Origin: Aldrovandia affinis
Lineage: Eukaryota > Chordata > Actinopteri > Notacanthiformes > Halosauridae
Direction: 5' to 3'
DNA length: 64,000 nt
Assembly (NCBI GenBank): GCA_029706075.1
Contig: JAINUG010000113.1
Coordinates: forward strand, 1,589,279 to 1,653,278
Made by a program: the position numbers and the translations under genes
Notes under the pieces: model-generated
The model's database searches: none
What the model was told of the DNA's origin: nothing
What the model saw: only the letters and a program-made list of their open reading frames with translations
Part shown: piece after piece, positions 5,831 through 45,651 of the stretch
Position numbering within the stretch: position 1 is the first letter of the stretch
Layout: every line of letters begins with the position of its first letter

Positions 5831-6639
5831 GCTACAAGCTCCTCCCAACATGCCAGGTGCCCACAGGCTGCCAGCTGTCACCAGTGAGAGATATGCCTCT
5901 CTTCTGATCTATGCTAGCTCTCTCCTGTAGTACTGTGTGGACTGCAGGGTTGTATAGGGTGTGAAAAGAGTGTATGTGCTCCATCTGCATTGCTCCTGCT
6001 TTGCACGTGCAGGTGGCATTGTGGTAACTACAGAGACACAAGTGGTGATGGAAATCTGGGGACAAAAAATGGGGACAAAATCGAAAAGGAATTGAGGATC
6101 TTAGTGGATCTTAAAGACCATGGGAGTCTGAATCATTGCGTTAGCAGCCCAGCATCAAAGCACACCAATCAATATTGAATGCTTTCCTGGTTGACTGAAA
6201 CATCAATATTTGAGGTTGTGTCCCATGTCTTTATGAAAAAACAGAAAAATACTATTTCAGACCTGCCAGCATATGAAGGTATTTTGCATACCAGGCCAAC
6301 ACACGTGGGTATTTTGAGGTCAAAGTACATGGGTACGCAGGTATCACTTTCAACTACACAAATATGAGGCTTCAGTTAAAACATAGCATACAGAAGTCAT
6401 TATATTTGGGCCTGTGATTTCAAATATTGAATGATTTTAAAGAATCAAACTCTGTGCGCAACCCCCCAGCCACTCAAAAGATACTCATAAGGATTTCCCA
6501 ATCTTGGGAATTCAAGAATATCAATAATAGTGTATGAATGAATGATTAGGTTTCAGGTACTTCTACAGTGGAATATATGGAGAGGCATAATCCTTACCGA
6601 TACAGCACCGAGTTCTGTCCCTTTTCAGGGTCTCTCACA

Positions 6640-7285
6640 AAAATAACTACAATGACTCTCAGTCCACACAAACATTGACTTCAATACCCTCTGGCCTCAT
6701 TAAACACACAGAATTCAGAAACAACTTCACACCGCCACACAATAATGCCCCAAATGTGTTAATAACGCCCAGGGTTATTTAGATTTTCCTTCTTATCTTC
6801 TGCTTATTCTTCTCCTTCTTACTTTTCCTGCTGATTACATCATCAAAGATAACACCATCTGTTCATAGTTGCCAATTGCAGGGCACGTAGGCAAAAAAGT
6901 TATTTTTTCACATAAAACTATCAGTGTTGCCAAACTAGGGTATATTCCCCCAAAAGCAAGTGTTTTGAAAAATGAATGGGGTAAGTTTCAAAGCAAAACT
7001 GTCTGTTCACCATTTTAAACAACAATTTGTTATCAAACGCGCCATTAAAAAACTCTTGTTGCTGATGTACTGCTTTTAAATAACCAGATGGAATCATAAT
7101 TTCTTCGTCTGTGTGGCCGTCTGCCCAATTTAAAAATGACAATTCACCAATGGCATAAAAACCGCTGATGAAAAACCAGATGAATTGCTTTTAAAAAATG
7201 ATATCTTGAACATATTCAATTGCTTTATTCATTTGGTGAAAGCCATGCGTGATACACTGAATAGTGAAAATAAATATATGAAATA
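6640..7285 (+). repeat. unclassified dispersed repeat, short form
   Basis: Two consecutive segments of this region recur in the same order and orientation at 35431-36990. Segment A (6640 to about 7000) shares ATAACTACAATG, AACACACAGAATTCA, CACCATCTGTTCATAGTT and TTGCCAAACT with the second copy. Segment B (about 7004-7285) shares GGAATCATAATTT, ACAATTCACCAATG and TTTGGTGAAAGCCATGC. Here A and B are directly joined; in the other copy about 880 bp lie between them. No terminal inverted repeats or coding capacity were seen. Confidence 0.7.
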
Positions 7286-8044
7286 AAAGATTTGGTATGC
7301 AGCCCGGTTTTTGTATTTTACAGATGCATAAGAGTATATGATTTGTATGTGAGTAAGTGTTTGTTTTAGGTTGATATGTAATATATTCATATATTTATTA
7401 TAATAATAATTTACAATGACAAAATTTCCACATTATGAATGCACATTTAGTAGAGCTGTTAGCAGCTTTGCAGAAAAGTATTTTTTTCCTTATATTGACA
7501 TGTTACACAACCCAACATGTCAAACGATGATGACGTAGATGACACCAAAAATTGCCGCCTGGTCTACGATCTACTGTACGTTGGTATTAGTATGGATGTT
7601 GCCCTCGCTCTGACAGAGGGCGCTAGAGAGAGAGGTAGAAGCCCTTATGAGTTTCAAATAAATTCCCTGCTCTCCCGTTTATCGCACTGCTGTTCAACAC
7701 TGGTGACACTTTAATACAGTGTGCCAATCAAAGTGCCATACAATGGGACTCTTATCAGAATCATTTAGGGGAACAGACGACACACAATCCTGAGGTCTGC
7801 TGTGCACTGAACTCCTAAACATTACTGGCAGCATAGGAATGGTGGAATTTAAGGGGCTTAATAGGCCAATATAGTAGTACTGTAGTACGGTAGATGAGGA
7901 AAATATTACATTTAAAAAAATATTATATAATTATTACATTTTGGAATAATTATGGATTCGCTTACCTGAGGCCTTTGTGACCTACCTAGTTTATATTTAG
8001 AGTATAGCATGGTATTAATTTGAGCAATTCAGTCGTTTCAAGTT
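7286..8044. other. non-coding with one small unassigned frame
   Basis: AT-rich sequence holding one frame at plus 7517-7714 (65 codons) that begins MSNDDDVDDTKNCRLVYDLL and is unusually balanced in composition. I recognise no family. It has no splice or promoter context and is most likely a chance frame. Confidence 0.3.
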
Positions 8045-10870: not shown

Positions 10871-11018
10871 GTTTAATAAAATTCCTAAATTTGGTCTGTA
10901 TACCAAATTATTGATATGAAAATGAGTTACAACTAAACTTTCATAAATATATTTCACAGAAACTAAACAAGGACTGTTCCAAAGCAATGCTTCCATTTTT
11001 TCCTACATTTGTTCAAGT
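10871..11018 (+). repeat. dispersed repeat C, copy 1
   Basis: Matches 37546-37690 in the same orientation. Shared blocks are TACCAAATTATTGATAT, AACTAAACT, ATATATTTCACA and CTAAAGCAATG (here CCAAAGCAATG), then TTCCTACATT. No protein coding or terminal repeats were detected, so the family is unassigned. Confidence 0.65.
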
Positions 11019-17050: not shown

Positions 17051-17285
17051 TGGGCAGCAGTGTAGCGTAACGGTTAGGGAACTGGGCTTGTAACTCAGAG
17101 GTTGCTGGTTCGATTCCCAGGTGGGGGCACTGCCGTTGTACTCCTGAGCAAGGTACTTAACCCGGATTGCTTCAGTAAAAAATATCCAGTTGTATAAATG
17201 TATTGTATGTTAAGAAAAAACATTTAAATTGTGTACGTCGCTCTGGATAAGAGCGTCTGCTAAATGCCTAAAAATGTCAAATGTA
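17051..17285 (+). mobile_element. tRNA-derived SINE, about 235 bp
   Basis: The element has a tRNA-like head with A-box TAGCGTAACGG (about 17063-17073) and a perfect B-box GGTTCGATTCC (17107-17117). A body with CTGAGCAAGGTACTTAACCC follows. The 3' tail GTCGCTCTGGATAAGAGCG then CTGCTAAATGCC spans about 17237-17268. This is the standard fish tRNA-SINE architecture, with internal RNA polymerase III promoter boxes. Decayed relatives lie at 2.9 kb and 8.0 kb, and the tail is reused at 21.4 kb. Confidence 0.9.
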
Positions 17286-21408: not shown

Positions 21409-21606
21409 TTACATTTTACATTTACATTTTACATTTTAAGCATTTAGCAGACTCTTACCCAGAGCGACTTGCAAGATGTGCATTAATACACGGTAAGAAC
21501 AATCTCTTGCACTAACCATGTTTAACCTTACCATGTATAAATGCACTTTTTGTAAGTCGCTCTAGATAAGAGCGTCTGCTAAATGCCTAAAATGTCAATG
21601 CAAATG
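21409..21606. mobile_element. foldback element of two inverted SINE-type tails
   Basis: The left arm contains GCATTTAGCAGACTCTTACC and CAGAGCGACTTGCAAG. The right arm contains its inverse, GTAAGTCGCTCTAGATAAGA then GCGTCTGCTAAATGCC. Each arm is about 60 bp around a non-repetitive centre of about 80 bp. Each arm is the same module as the tail of the SINE at 17.2 kb, but here two copies face each other and no tRNA head is present. It looks like a MITE-like or head-lacking inverted dimer. Confidence 0.7.
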
Positions 21607-33376: not shown

Positions 33377-33458
33377 TTATGTTTGTGGAAACCCATTAAA
33401 ATTAGTTTCTTATTGCATGTTTTTTGGTTATGTAGCATATGTATATATATATACAGTA

Positions 33459-33609
33459 TATGCCATTTAGCAGATGATTTTATCCAAAGCAACTTACAGT
33501 ATTGAATGCATACATTTTTTTCAGTATATATGTGGTCCCAGTGGGAATTTAACCCACAACCTAAGCATTGCCAACGCCATGCTTTACCAACTGAGCCACA
33601 CAGAACCAC
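33459..33609 (-). mobile_element. tRNA-derived SINE, antisense
   Basis: Minus-strand reading begins with a tRNA-like head: GTGTGGCTCAGTTGGTAAAG (A-box) and GTGGGTTAAATTCCCAC (a B-box variant). It ends with a tail GTAAGTTGCTTTGGATAAAA then TCTGCTAAATGGC at about 33464-33497. This is the tail module shared with the 17.2-kb SINE and 21.4-kb foldback, but the head differs, so it is a different SINE family. Confidence 0.78.
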
Positions 33610-35358: not shown

Positions 35359-35430
35359 GTCTTCTGAAAGCCAAGGCCTCTCAAAACATAGAAACTTCAA
35401 GAAATGCTAATATATACTTACATATTACAT

Positions 35431-36990
35431 AAACATAACTACAATGGCCACAGTCTCTCATTACTTACAAACATTAACTTCTGCACCCTCTGACCTCATG
35501 TAAACACACAGAATTCAAATACAACTTCAAACAGCCACACAATAAAGCCCCAAACACGTGTCTCTTCCTTATCCTCTTCTTCTTCTTCTTCTTATTATTA
35601 TTATGCTTTTTCTTCTACAATTTCCTGTCAATTACATTGTGAAAAATGTTCCATTCCCCAAATGATTAATTCTCCCCATTAATCAATATCTAAATCTGTT
35701 CAAATCTAGATAGATCAGATCTACCAATAGCACCATCTGTTCATAGTTAAATTATTAAAAGTTTAATTTACACACAGGCAAATTATTATTTTCTTATTTT
35801 TTTTCATAAAATTAACAGGGTTGCCAAACTGGGGAACATTCCGCCAAATGTAGAGATTTTTTTTTATTACTTGGGAGGTTTCAAAGCAGAAATTTATGGG
35901 AGCCAATGATAGATTTTTAAAGAACATACAGCGGGAATGTTAAAACATTTATATGGGAGTCAGTTGAATAATATTTTGGGTGGAAAATTCTAAACCATAC
36001 ATCTGGCAACACTGAAAAGGATGTGCACATCCTATTAAAGCCAATAGAACATACACTAAAAAAAACGTATTGGATACCATTTTTTTCTGGCTTGCTAACT
36101 CATAACACCAGAATATTAAAATACTATTTCTTATATAGTTGTAACTTTAATTTATACATTCAACAAAAATACATGTCTAATGCATGTCTAATACCATCTA
36201 AATACAATCTAAAATTATATTGTATCATTACATGTGTAAACCCTACATCATATATATATTCCATCACACATTCCATCATTAACCTTCCCTTGATGTCTAC
36301 ATAGCTACCTCATTAACTAGTTATAGGTCAGGTGTTTCATTAACAACAGCGTACTGCCTAGCTTTCCAGTCACATAATATTCATTAGCTACAGTAGTTAG
36401 CCATCTATAGCTAGCATGTTGTCCTCCCCACCCACAGACGTTTGCTAGCTTGGGAAGGATGGCTTCCTACTAAAGTTTAAAATAACAATGCTCACTTTAA
36501 AACTGCATGTTTTTACTTGAAGGAATACAACTACAAAAGATCACCTTCTGTAACATTATCATAATCCATTTGTTCAAGTTAGATGATATGTGCCAATATA
36601 TGACTATATACTGTCACGAAACAGCACACAACAAATGCAAATGTGTCCTCACTCCACACTGTCACACAGTGAACGCATCTTTTATGATTACATTACCAAT
36701 ATACAATTATAACATTATAAATGTGTTAATTTGCACAATAATATGTTGCCCTTACCTGTTGTAAATTATTCTGTCTTTTCACCGTTTTACACAACAATTT
36801 GGCATCAACCATGCTATTAAAAACCATATGGAATCATAATTTATTTATTGTGAATTTTACAATTCACCAATGACATCAAAACTGCTGCTGAAAAACCCTT
36901 TCTTGGCTGTATTCAATAATTGGTTTATTAATTTGGTGAAAGCCATGCATAATACACTGAACAGTTCAAATAAATACAAAACATAAAATA
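35431..36990 (+). repeat. unclassified dispersed repeat, long form
   Basis: Segment A (35431 to about 35893) and segment B (about 36771-36990) match the two parts of the repeat at 6640-7285, in the same order and orientation. Shared words include ACACACAGAATTCA, CACCATCTGTTCATAGTT and TTTGGTGAAAGCCATGC. Between A and B this copy has about 880 bp absent from the other. The middle has no recognised coding sequence (frames at 36023-36304 and 36507-36764 lack domains). Confidence 0.68.
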
Positions 36991-37545: not shown

Positions 37546-37690
37546 TTGTAATAAAATCGGTTTGCATACCAAATTATTGATATCAAAATGATGCCAAGTT
37601 ATAACTAAACTGTCACCAATATATTTCACACAAACCTAACAAGCACTGTCCTAAAGCAATGTTTCCTATGTTTTCCTACATTCGTAACTT
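37546..37690 (+). repeat. dispersed repeat C, copy 2
   Basis: Same family as 10871-11018 (shared TACCAAATTATTGATAT and ATATATTTCACA). It lies about 550 bp beyond the end of the long-form repeat, whereas copy 1 lies about 3.6 kb beyond the short form. Confidence 0.65.
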
Positions 37691-41078: not shown

Positions 41079-41904
41079 TAAACAGATGTTCCAGTATGAG
41101 GCCATTGCCAGTGATATGTGAAGCATGGCTGTGAGACAGGCTTTGTTTCGAGGGCTGTGGCAAAAGCGTAGCATAATGTCAGTCTCCATTGCCTGCACCT
41201 TTGTGATCTGATTATGGTTGGAATCTTCAGCTTGCATTAGTGTAAATGAAACATATATATATATATATAATTAAATAATGCCAGGGATTACACGTGGCTC
41301 TGTTGAAGAATTAGGACTGGAAATTATAATAAATGACATTTAATTTAAAAAATGTGAAAACTAAAAATAATCATACTAATTATTTAAAGGAGCTAAATAC
41401 AGAATTATGACATTTTTAGAGCATTTGAAATCATGGGGTTCAAGAAATTGATTGATTGAACCTACCCAGCTTGGTGTGTTTGGATCCTAAAGGGTTGGTC
41501 AAGTCCCACATTAATAATTCATTTGGTAACATCCAGTGGTGTATAAAGTACCCAAAAGCCATACTTGAGTAAAAGTAAAGATACCTTACTGGAAAATGAC
41601 TCTGGTAAAAGTGAAAGTCACCTATTAGAATATTTCCCTTATACTCTTTCCCTGGTGTGTGTACAACCTGCTTTCTCTTGACCAATCCGGTTCAATGGTC
41701 TTATGTAGCCTGTAAAGTCAGGGCAGAACCCGTTATGCATGTTGTACATCCATAGCCCTGGGACAGAATATCCCAGTCATAAAACAAAATTAAAATAAAG
41801 TGCTCAGTACTTGAGTGCTGCTACCACATCATAACATAATCATCCACAAAATGACACAAAATCAAAACATGACTGAAGCAGCACTGAAAGTAATAACCCA
41901 GTCA

Positions 41905-44900
41905 TTACCTGGAACTATAAAATTTGCTGTTCATCTTCAACAGAAGTTGGTTCTCAAAATTGTGTGAATGCAGTCTCGCTCTTCTTGGGCTGAAGACAAG
42001 TCCTGCGATGCTAAATAACCTTTCACAGGCTGCTGAGGCAGGTAGAGGCATGTTCAGCTTCACAGACAGTTTGCAAACAGCTGGAAAGGACTTCAGCGAC
42101 TTCAGTCCATATGATCTGCTGAAATGGCCAGGTATCCGTCCAGTTCTTTGGAGCTGTCTTGTGCTTGAGGCGCCTGCAGGGCAGAGAATAAGTCTTCTTT
42201 GTCAGATTAACTGGTGGCATCACCTAGCTGCAGGGAGGGTGCTTCCATTTGTTGCTTGATGTAGTCCATCCCTGAAATATAGTGAGGATGGGATGATCAA
42301 AATATAAATTATAGGATTAATACAACTTTCTAACATGTCATGACCCCAACCTAAGGGTTTGTACTAAATAGTTTGTTTTAATTTGAGGTGTATACATTTA
42401 GTTTCATGTATCCATAATCGATTTGTGAATTTGCCAATATTACAAAGTGTCAAAATGTACACCCATACACTTATTTTTCATTATCCCCATGTTGTCTTAC
42501 CCATTCTGATTGTGGCATCATCCTTTGTCCAAGATGTTCGGAACTTCTGGAAGAAGAATCGCAGCTGCGATCAACTCAGGGTCTTCTGTCATGTGGCCAA
42601 ACCGATTCTTTATTTCCACCTGTATCAGAAATCACAAACGATTTTATTGCCATGTAGGCTTCCACCTACTAGGAATTTGTTTTGGTACATTAGTGCATGA
42701 CAGTAAACAATAAACAAACATTATGCAAGGAATGAGATACAATACAATATACCTGTAGGACATCCACCAAAGGCCTGCAGTATTTCAGTCGCAACTTGAC
42801 TCTGTCAAGTTTGGCGGTCAGCAGGTTGATTGTTGGAAGTAGCCACCCCATCTGGACATTTGCTTCTGCTTGCAAGATGTTGGTTGCCTGGGCGACCGGG
42901 CTCATGGCAGCGGCATACTCTGTGAGGAATGCAAGTTCAGCTGGATTGAACCTGTGATGAAAAAAAAAACAACAACATCGTTTTATAAAACTATATAACC
43001 ATTTCATCGAATTCAACAAATAAATTGCTGGATGAGTAATTAAAGCTGCATGAGAACTTTTTTATAGTTAAATATTCACATTTTTTTGCTATTATGCTTT
43101 TGCTATTATGAATTGGCCTTTATTATGAATTTATTGTTTTAGACTGTCGGTGTACTGGTACACCATCACTTCAATGCAGTGCCGTTTTTTTTTATCACAA
43201 CCAGAGGTGGCGCCAAAGTTCAAAATTTGCCAAAGTTATCTCATGCAGCTTTAACTAAATGGACCAATGATACGTGGAAGTTGGGATACAACTGTGAAAC
43301 AGTTATTAGTGCCCAAGAAAGGGTGGGGAAACACTGACAGTTCATCAATTATGAAATAATAAAACCATAATTCCTTACATTGGAACTTACATTGGAACTT
43401 CAAGTCTGTGCATATGACTCTGATGGCCCCCTCTCCCTTGTCTTTGATGATCCTCAGCAGTCTTTCCACTGCCAGGAACAAAGAGTTCCACCTGGTAGCA
43501 TTTGGGTGCAGCAGCTGGAGGGAGCACACATCTTCAACAGTTTTGGCTGCAAGTGTGGATCTTCCACATTTGTTCCAAAGTGCATTACACTTGCCAAATG
43601 TTGAACGGTACACTTTCTTGCATGCCACACTGGATATTGCTTTCGTGGCATCAACCGTCAAGCTATTAGGTTGAGAAGGTGACAAGCACAGCGCTGGTGC
43701 TTTGGGAGCTTGAACTCCAAACCATCATCTTCATTCAGAAGAGATGACACATCAACAAACTCTTCAGCCTCGTCTTGATCCTCTTGATCCTCTCCATCCT
43801 CTCTTGGTTGAGATGCATCACCATCACTTCCGACTGCATTGTTGTTCTCATCTTCACCAAAAACCTGGAAAGCTTTTATGAAGTTGGAGCCGTTGTCTGT
43901 TGTTGTTCTTACAATCTTCCCCCAAATTTCGAACTCAGAATGGATGTCATTCAGGGCGCTTGCCAACACATCAAATGTGTGTGCACCTCTCAGCCGTTTA
44001 CAGGCTAGGGCTGCTAAGCATCTTTGGAGAATGTCAGGGTCAATCCAATGGGCAGTAACACCAATGAAACTCGGCCTTCTGACAGACCAGCAGTCGGTGG
44101 TGGCGATATGGTCAACTCACCTCATGGCCCCAGTCACCGCCTTGTTCAACCAGAGAGAACGGCTGGAGCCCTTGGGCCACATACTTCATGACAGCTTTGT
44201 CAATGGACCTAAGATAAGATAAGAGGAGGTGGGGGGGTTTGCTACAGCAGCAGTGATGGAGAAAGGTACTGAAGATACACAATATATACAAAGTTATACC
44301 TCTGAGACACAGTGCGGGTGCTGTTACACCTCTGAGACATGGTGCTGTTCACTATGGTGGTCTGCCTGCTGGTGGAGGAGGGAGTCGAGGGAGTCTCAGC
44401 CCTCTTTATCTTTGTTGATGTCAGCTCTCCATATTTTTTAAGTTGGTGCACATGCTTTCTCTGAAACAGACTGCAGTGATAGAGAGACATTTTCTAAGCA
44501 TCACAACTTTAGCTACAGGATTTAAAAGCTACTCAACAACACTAGTCAATGACCATATGTAACATTTCCTATACTAATTATTACACAAATTTACCCAAAC
44601 GCTGTCACATGCTTTGCAAAGCTCCTTCAACCTGTCCCCTCTTACTGCTAGCCTACTAACTGACAGCCTCATTAGCCCCACTTGCTACACACACACACAC
44701 ACAAATCTCCAACTCCAGCCACTGTAGAGAAAAGCAGGACCAAGAATTCCAATGTACTACTTGTTGCATATGGCCTATTCAACTTTAACGTTAATTCATT
44801 CATTCTCCGTCGTGGTTCAATGCGCTCTCGTGCCTCCTGTCATTCCTTCTCAACTCTACTAGTGCAGCAATGCAATGATAGCTAAGTTATAGCTAACGTT

Positions 44901-45338
44901 AGCTACAGTAGCTAAGATGACTCAAATTAATCTGTCTACACTAATGGTCTCATTCGATTCATGATAGCTAGCGAACGTCAGCCAGACATACGCCATGTTA
45001 CCTTGTTATCCCCCCCTCTCTCCCCCGCCACAGATAGCTAACGTTAGCTACACAATCCTGTGGGAACTGCTCTGAACAGGCTATGCTAATGATGATAAGT
45101 AACTAAACATTAATGTTGCGGCTCATGGGATTAATCTTAATTTACTTCAATGTGTTTCTTGAGGTTGGACGGAGAGTTCTTGAATGCCAATATCTCCGTC
45201 ATTTTCGGTAGGCATAAGCAGCACTTCATTCGGTAGGACAAATCTTTTACTCCAAGATAAGAAAACATTTATTGCAAATATGGCCAAGGGTGTTGCCGCC
45301 GGAGTAACAGGTGCCGTTTCCAAATCAATCTCCATCAT
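41905..45338 (-). pseudogene. Tol2-like hAT transposase, six exons, broken
   Basis: Inferred minus-strand exons are 45338-45146, 44460-44300, 44208-43391, 42951-42753, 42619-42501 and 42271-41905. Exon 1 holds the BED zinc finger start (KCCLCLP), and the finger is completed across the splice (LKKHIE then RKH). Exon 3 has TTTDCW, LNDIHSEFEI, TTTDNGSNF, an acidic linker, the CACHLLNL motif and TRWNS. Exon 4 reads LQAEANVQMGWLLP. Exon 6 ends in ASAACERLFSIAGLVF and NFENQLLLKMN, the hAT dimerisation region. Order and wording match Tol2 transposase. Lesions: a frameshift and TAA in exon 1, loss of about 55 residues before TTTDCW, frameshifts near 43660 and 43400, one in exon 5 and one in exon 6, plus an in-frame TAA. 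Exon 2's donor is the least certain boundary. Confidence 0.88.
43040..43254. mobile_element. TTAA-flanked MITE nested in the transposase intron
   Basis: The left end TTAAAGCTGCATGAGAACTT and the right end AAGTTATCTCATGCAGCTTTAA are inverted repeats of about 20 bp. TTAA is at both edges. It is 215 bp long and has no coding capacity. It lies in the intron between exons 3 and 4 of the Tol2-like transposase, so it inserted after that element. TTAA flanks fit a piggyBac-type mechanism; a TWA (Harbinger) reading of the edges is also possible because the flank is palindromic. Confidence 0.78.
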
Positions 45339-45651
45339 GAAGTCTTCTTCCCCAATGATTCATGTACTAGTCCATCGACATGTCTGGACTTGATGAAATT
45401 AGAATTTTAACCGCGGCTTTGAGGGCACCTAACGTGATTAACCAATGATCTAACTTCTTGCAGTTGTGTTTCAAAAACATTGGCTACCAATGTCTTCTGA
45501 TTTTATTTTGTTGTAGTAACGAGTAACGAAGATGCTTATGGGAAATGTATCGGAGTAAAAGTATCAGTTTTCTTTGGAAAATTTAGAGAAGTCGTCAGAA
45601 ATAGAAATAGTAAGTATTTCTACTTCGTTACTATACACTACTGCTAACATC

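What the first reader, a model, noticed from the sequence alone, without database searches (positions are those of the whole stretch)
41534..45643. Complete, datable Tol2-like transposon with all parts visible
Both inverted ends, a 7-of-8 target duplication, six inferable exons with GT-AG boundaries and a BED finger split by an intron can be read directly. The lesions (frameshifts, a stop, a deletion of about 55 residues before the first catalytic D) show death after insertion. Autonomous Tol2-type copies are rare in vertebrates, so an ancient full-length copy with its own exon layout is informative.
Basis: partly seen in the sequence, partly recalled or inferred. Interest (0 to 1): 0.7.

Follow-up and report, generated by a model that had tools for sequence, protein, structure and literature searches.

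The report
Tol2-like fish transposon with borrowed intron
This is one decayed copy of a multi-copy jumping gene, probably of a fish, closely related to Tol2, and one of its introns looks like the tail of another jumping element that landed in the gene and became spliceable.

Summary
41534-45643 is a Tol2-type hAT element: 12-bp ends matching 11/12, 8-bp duplication 7/8, six-exon minus-strand transposase gene. It is one of about 80 copies in its own genome (83 intron-4 matches), 4-7% from 18 of 20 fetched siblings. It is not complete: siblings carry about 252, 104, 54, 46 and 45 bp that it lacks. The loss before the first catalytic D is 104 bp, about 35 codons, not 55 residues. One of 20 siblings has an open 661-codon frame over the predicted exons, 56% identical to recalled Tol2. 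The exon layout is the less ordinary part. Tol2 has four exons; a sister family here also shows four pieces; this family has two more introns. Intron 4 (42620-42752) resembles the 3' tail of an interspersed LINE-like retroposon, is flanked by TACAGGT at both splice junctions, and is absent from at least three related lineages. It is best read as an intron born by retroposon insertion, then multiplied by the transposon. TE-born introns are already reported in fish (PMC12357937), so it is a variant of a known kind.

The parts
41534..45643 (-). hAT-Tol2 element, transposase gene on the minus strand; internally deleted copy, 4110 bp
41526..41533 (.). left target-site duplication GTAACATC
45644..45651 (.). 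right target-site duplication CTAACATC (7 of 8)
41534..41545 (+). left terminal inverted repeat CAGTGGTGTATA
45632..45643 (-). right terminal inverted repeat, 11 of 12 to the left
45146..45338 (-). exon 1, first part of BED finger; frame-disrupted in this copy
44461..45145 (-). intron 1, splits the BED finger; position agrees with the Tol2 exon 1/2 boundary as inferred from isoform lengths
44300..44460 (-). exon 2
44209..44299 (-). intron 2, extra relative to families L059 and L060; origin unknown
43391..44208 (-). exon 3, both catalytic D residues and CX2H motif; frame-disrupted
44140..44148 (.). junction of the 104-bp deletion in exon 3; 8 bases of the window align on both sides of it in siblings
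42952..43390 (-). intron 3
42753..42951 (-). exon 4
42620..42752 (-). intron 4, extra; read as retroposon-derived
42625..42750 (-). 126 bp between the two repeat copies; its 3' part resembles the 3' end of a LINE-like retroposon
42751..42757 (-). TACAGGT, copy at the 5' splice site (TACAG|GT)
42618..42624 (-). TACAGGT, copy at the 3' splice site (TACAG|GT)
42501..42619 (-). exon 5; frame-disrupted in this copy
42272..42500 (-). intron 5
41905..42271 (-). exon 6, catalytic E and hAT dimerisation domain (PF05699 21.7 bits, cut-off 21.4); frame-disrupted

Best explanation
Its ancestor encoded a roughly 660-residue transposase in six exons: a BED finger for DNA binding, an RNase-H DDE core and a C-terminal hAT domain. 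By analogy with Tol2 and Hermes, the transposase bound the 12-bp ends, cut and pasted the element, and left 8-bp duplications. This copy then decayed by deletions, frame shifts and stops. Within the hAT-Tol2 clade this family gained two introns. Intron 4 most likely began when the 5'-truncated 3' tail of a LINE-like retroposon inserted into the coding sequence at TACAGGT. The duplicated TACAGGT supplied both AG|GT splice junctions, so the insert could be spliced out. The intron then spread to the family's copies by transposition of its carrier. Shown: anatomy, membership, copies, intron absence in relatives, similarity to the retroposon tail. Inferred: splicing, insertion mechanism, activity.
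For: Siblings share ends and duplications. In 1 of 20 siblings an unedited 661-codon frame runs over the six predicted exons, 372/662 identical to recalled Tol2. BED pattern Cx2Cx19Hx4H as in Tgf2; D200, D266, E623. The only solved relatives by sequence are hAT transposases, best Hermes at E=1.9e-8. In the tree the family groups with L059 (0.994), then Tol2. Intron 4: GT in 18 of 21 and AG in 18 of 21 rows, the rest gaps. At least 34 rows of relatives match without interruption across its position, while this family matches in halves; junctions of four loci from at least three lineages align without it. A wildcard pattern found 7 places outside the family type, backward control 0. Upstream of the selected core, similarity beats shuffles in 3 of 4 loci (0, 2 and 0 of 2000). 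A motif form adapted to these loci has 37 genomic matches, control 0.
Against: No transcript or splicing data. The Tol2 protein used was recalled, not fetched, and Tol2's second and third intron positions were not tested. Pfam scores for the whole sibling protein fall below cut-off (PF05699 18.3 against 21.4; zf-BED 15.4 against 20.6). The retroposon tail as I first recalled it had 7 matches and no exact one. The 7 places include near-duplicates, and the core itself selected the loci. L066 fails the upstream test (648 of 2000) and L068 the downstream test (622 of 2000); other downstream results are only 24, 16 and 44 of 2000. The 7-base repeat overlaps splice consensus, so only about three of its bases are free evidence. 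No intron-less relative with exactly TACAGGT was found. Both ends could not be counted genome-wide (server busy).
Confidence: 0.73

Rival explanations
1. Ordinary Tol2-like element whose two extra introns are old and were lost in the other families; the resemblance of intron 4 to a retroposon tail is a later insertion into an existing intron.
For: Intron loss is named as the major factor for CACTA transposases (PMC4158355, title and start of abstract in the listing). Retroposons often land in introns (general knowledge).
Against: Requires separate losses in L059, L060 and the L072/L073 lineage, and in Tol2 if its four exons lack it. The retroposon-like part fills more than half of the intron and its tail abuts the TACAGGT repeat at the splice site.
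Confidence: 0.17
2. The locus is a domesticated, host-used transposase-derived gene rather than a dead transposon.
For: Long coding stretches are still recognisable.
Against: Frame-changing differences in exons 1, 3, 5 and 6 and 24 stops (one of them terminal) in the joined predicted frame; preserved ends and target duplication; star-like copies.
Confidence: 0.02
3. Intron 4 is an intronised stretch of coding sequence or a tandem duplication, and its match to the retroposon tail is chance.
For: The 7-base flanking repeat could come from a tandem duplication carrying AGGT.
Against: Relatives align across the junction without missing coding sequence. Upstream similarity outside the selected core exceeds shuffles in 3 of 4 loci.
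Confidence: 0.08

Closest known systems
Tol2 (medaka) and Tgf2 (goldfish), hAT superfamily
   Same: End-to-end transposase similarity (56% to recalled Tol2), BED pattern Cx2Cx19Hx4H as in Tgf2, DDE spacing 66 and 357 against 66 and 353 in recalled Tol2, CX2H, 8-bp duplications, intron splitting the BED finger near codon 73
   Different: Six exons instead of four; multi-copy and decayed here; terminal sequence differs from Tol2 as I recall it
Hermes transposase (house fly hAT, solved structure)
   Same: Best solved relative by sequence, E=1.9e-8; all four matched sequences are transposases, two named Hermes
   Different: Distant; I recall it as another hAT branch
TE-born introns: Introners (PMC9860276) and notothenioid slc26a2 introns (PMC12357937)
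   Same: New intron from a transposable element, splice sites drawn from the target duplication (passages)
   Different: Here the insert resembles a LINE tail, the host gene is itself a transposase, and one intron position was multiplied by its carrier rather than by many insertions

Membership tests
hAT superfamily, Tol2 type | 8-bp target duplication | tested here: met
   7/8 in the window; 8/8 in L047 and L051, 7/8 in L043, 3/8 in L040; other siblings lack a complete end
hAT superfamily, Tol2 type | short terminal inverted repeats | tested here: met
   11 of 12 bp
hAT superfamily, Tol2 type | C-terminal hAT dimerisation domain PF05699 | tested here: met
   window piece 21.7 bits, cut-off 21.4; whole sibling protein 18.3, below cut-off
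hAT superfamily, Tol2 type | N-terminal BED zinc finger | tested here: met
   pattern Cx2Cx19Hx4H in L048, as in Tgf2; Pfam zf-BED 15.4, below cut-off 20.6
hAT superfamily, Tol2 type | DDE catalytic residues and CX2H | tested here: met
   D200, D266, E623 and CACH in L048
hAT superfamily, Tol2 type | groups with Tol2 in a tree | tested here: met
   recalled Tol2 falls between L059 and L060 on a tree rooted on L061; family plus L059 supported at 0.994 (8 rows, 4 of this family)
hAT superfamily, Tol2 type | Tol2 four-exon layout | tested here: not met
   six exons against four (PMC4818426); a gene-structure variant, not a defining feature of hAT
hAT superfamily, Tol2 type | transposition activity | not testable with these tools
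   sequence only
Introner | one element family forming introns at many sites of the genome | tested here: inconclusive
   40 scored of 105 candidate matches to intron 4 are all 97-100% identical to it, as expected for copies of this transposon, but each place was not opened; retroposon copies in other genes were not examined; not filed as an Introner

The most novel reading that the evidence does not exclude
A spliceosomal intron of a vertebrate transposon was born when a LINE-like retroposon tail inserted into the transposase gene, its target duplication TACAGGT supplying both splice junctions; the DNA transposon then copied the new intron to about 80 genomic places, so one mobile element's insertion was made harmless by splicing and amplified by another.
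Probability: 0.7. Interest if true: 0.5.

Novelty: new variant of a known kind. Interest (0 to 1): 0.38.

Why it matters
Vertebrate intron gain is described as very rare with largely unknown mechanisms, and new introns of fish serpins could not be traced to repeats (PMC2746811 passages). Here donor, target duplication and intron-less relatives can be seen together in one genome, in many parallel copies. If true, it is a datable natural experiment on how an insertion becomes an intron, and shows a transposon tolerating another element by splicing it out.

Tried and rejected
Rejected: 'complete' and 'ancient'; a 55-residue loss; a domesticated gene. The origin of intron 2 was not found: no similarity to the retroposon loci, only a 23-nt imperfect repeat at the end of exon 2. 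Intron 5, as a control, also showed none. The 152-aa exon-3 piece found no solved structure. Five of seven window pieces had no Pfam match, and the exon-3 piece only a sub-threshold unrelated one. Paper searches listed no paper on an intron gained inside a hAT transposase, but listings were partial: 25 of 49; 6 of 6; 25 of 53; 15 of 16; 1 of 1; 12 of 24; 8 of 8; 8 of 13,737. I saw listings and the passages cited, and section 5 of PMC4818426; no whole paper.

Not done: count of both ends (and short derivatives) in the genome, empty site of this insertion, species name, calibrated age, contiguity search for intron 2.

Full report
What was checked. The stretch 41534-45643 begins CAGTGGTGTATA, and its reverse complement begins CAGTAGTGTATA, 11 of 12. 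It is flanked by GTAACATC and CTAACATC, 7 of 8. With up to 3 mismatches the chosen end sequences match nowhere else in the window. BLAST of the element against 20 fetched sibling regions gives long pieces of about 80-95% identity, with short ones up to 100%. The extreme left end is found in 11 of 20 siblings (L046 is cut by the locus edge at base 9), and a piece of the terminal right end in 10 of 20. Duplications are 8/8 in L047 and L051, 7/8 in L043 and 3/8 in L040; other siblings lack an end or have it trimmed.

Copies. The exon-3 protein gave 151 matches from 150 scored of 461 candidates. The first 43 rows are the window itself and 42 places at 81-94% identity; later rows include partial matches of this family and related families at about 48-68% (list not complete). 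A pattern for the core of intron 4 gives 90 genomic matches, 83 of this family's type and 7 of another type; a few of the 83 lie close together, so copies may be slightly fewer. Copies are therefore not rare. Activity was not tested.

Age. K2P distance from the window copy is 0.041-0.067 for 18 of 20 siblings and 0.096 and 0.108 for L046 and L058, perhaps through misaligned inserts; the mean over 20 is 0.056. The window's own terminal branch is 0.027 and the tree is star-like. At an assumed, uncalibrated neutral rate of 2.5-10 per billion sites and year (recalled), that is roughly 3-11 million years.

Gene. Exon boundaries on the minus strand were read from the window and checked in the alignment of 21 rows. 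All five introns keep GT and AG in most rows (15-19 GT and 17-18 AG of 21); the exceptions are mainly gaps, with a few changed bases. In 1 of 20 siblings (L048) the six predicted exons join to a 661-codon frame without any change; its terminal right-end motif was not found. It aligns end to end with Tol2 as I recall it, 372/662 identical. The BED finger has the Tgf2 pattern Cx2Cx19Hx4H (PMC4890040, 12 passages). D200, D266 and E623 are present, spacing 66 and 357, against 66 and 353 in recalled Tol2. Four distinct solved sequences match, all transposases, two named Hermes. Pfam support is at or below cut-off.

Lesions. By a 60% majority of covering siblings the window copy lacks about 252 bp near the left end, 104 bp in exon 3, 54 bp in intron 1, 46 bp near the right end and 45 bp in intron 3, and has smaller frame-changing differences in exons 1, 3, 5 and 6 (24 differences listed; one 50-base entry at the very end is flank, not element). 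The joined predicted frame has 24 stops, one of them terminal. The exon-3 loss corresponds to about 35 codons. The script did not separate lesions made after insertion from those of the immediate source.

Exon layout. Tol2 mRNA has four exons; Tol2-S (576 aa) comes from exons 2-4 and Tol2-M has 649 aa (PMC4818426 section 5). This places the first boundary near codon 73, as here; the other Tol2 boundaries were not seen. L059 matches Tol2 in four pieces, with breaks at the places of introns 1, 3 and 5 and none at introns 2 and 4; L060 likewise lacks breaks at 2 and 4, its first exon not being seen. A tree of 8 projected proteins places this family with L059 (0.994), then Tol2, then L060, rooted on L061. 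Introns 2 and 4 are thus best read as gains on this family's stem.

Intron 4. It is 133 nt in 12 of 21 rows, with TACAG|GT at donor and acceptor in the window. I recalled a fish retroposon tail like its inner part and wrote a wildcard pattern from both. Seven matches outside the family type appeared, backward control 0; three on C1113 are alike in the matched stretch, and L066 and L070 share flanks, so independent places are about four. Five were fetched. Aligned with intron 4 they agree from about TGCACCAA to TTCTGA. Local scores exceed all 500 dinucleotide shuffles for four of four loci tested, but those loci were chosen by the core. Outside the core, with simple shuffles, the upstream part is reached by 648, 0, 2 and 0 of 2000 and the downstream part by 24, 16, 622 and 44 of 2000 (L066-L069). 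Introns 2 and 5 show no such similarity. The tail as I recalled it had 7 matches, none exact; a form adapted to the fetched loci has 37 matches, 14 exact, control 0. An 801-base stretch next to one tail carries frames that I read as the C-terminal end of a LINE reverse transcriptase; the only Pfam hit above cut-off is PF09004, 4.7e-13, which I recall as often sitting on LINE proteins. The name LINE is therefore inferred.

Absence elsewhere. With a 107-aa query spanning the junction (159 matches, 150 scored of 322 candidates), at least 34 rows are contiguous: 11 at 91-100%, 21 at 54-59%, and single rows at 69% and 64%; some shorter rows also cross the junction. This family matches in two parts, 1-66 and about 47/60-106; two C225 rows and one C1369 row read through the intron region with stops and coincide with intron-4 matches. 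Junctions of L059, L060, L072 and L073 align without an insert. L072 and L073 are close to each other, so this is at least three lineages. Their letters at the junction are not TACAGGT, so a perfect empty site is missing.

Reading. A retroposon tail inserted at TACAGGT, both junctions came from the duplicated target, and transposition then multiplied the intron. [quoted passage not shown] New introns of fish serpins could not be traced to repeats (PMC2746811, 12 passages). The case is a variant of that known kind inside a known transposon kind.

Noticed in passing
L059 and matches at C2244, C1955, C2117, C2145, C2500: A sister Tol2-type family matching Tol2 in four pieces; most of its full-length rows are 96-100% identical over 107 residues with mostly open frames, so it probably moved more recently than the window's family.
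   Followed up: partly
window 44209-44299 and 44293-44345: Intron 2 is also extra; the end of exon 2 carries a 23-nt imperfect direct repeat, one copy of which holds the splice donor. Origin unknown.
   Followed up: partly
window 17220-17273, 21539-21592, 33457-33510: Three UnaL2-type LINE 3' elements (Rfam RF00436), with a tRNA-family match at 33541-33598 beside one, suggesting a SINE.
   Followed up: no
window 6636-7288 and 10886-11012 against 35428-36988 and 37552-37685: Diverged collinear repeats (67-84% identity) about 27-30 kb apart, perhaps an old duplication or a repeat family.
   Followed up: no
L040: This sibling matches the element's first 100-670 bases twice, suggesting a partial tandem duplication.
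   Followed up: no
L061: A more distant Tol2-like family whose first large frame runs across the positions of introns 1 and 3, hinting at stepwise intron gain in the clade.
   Followed up: no
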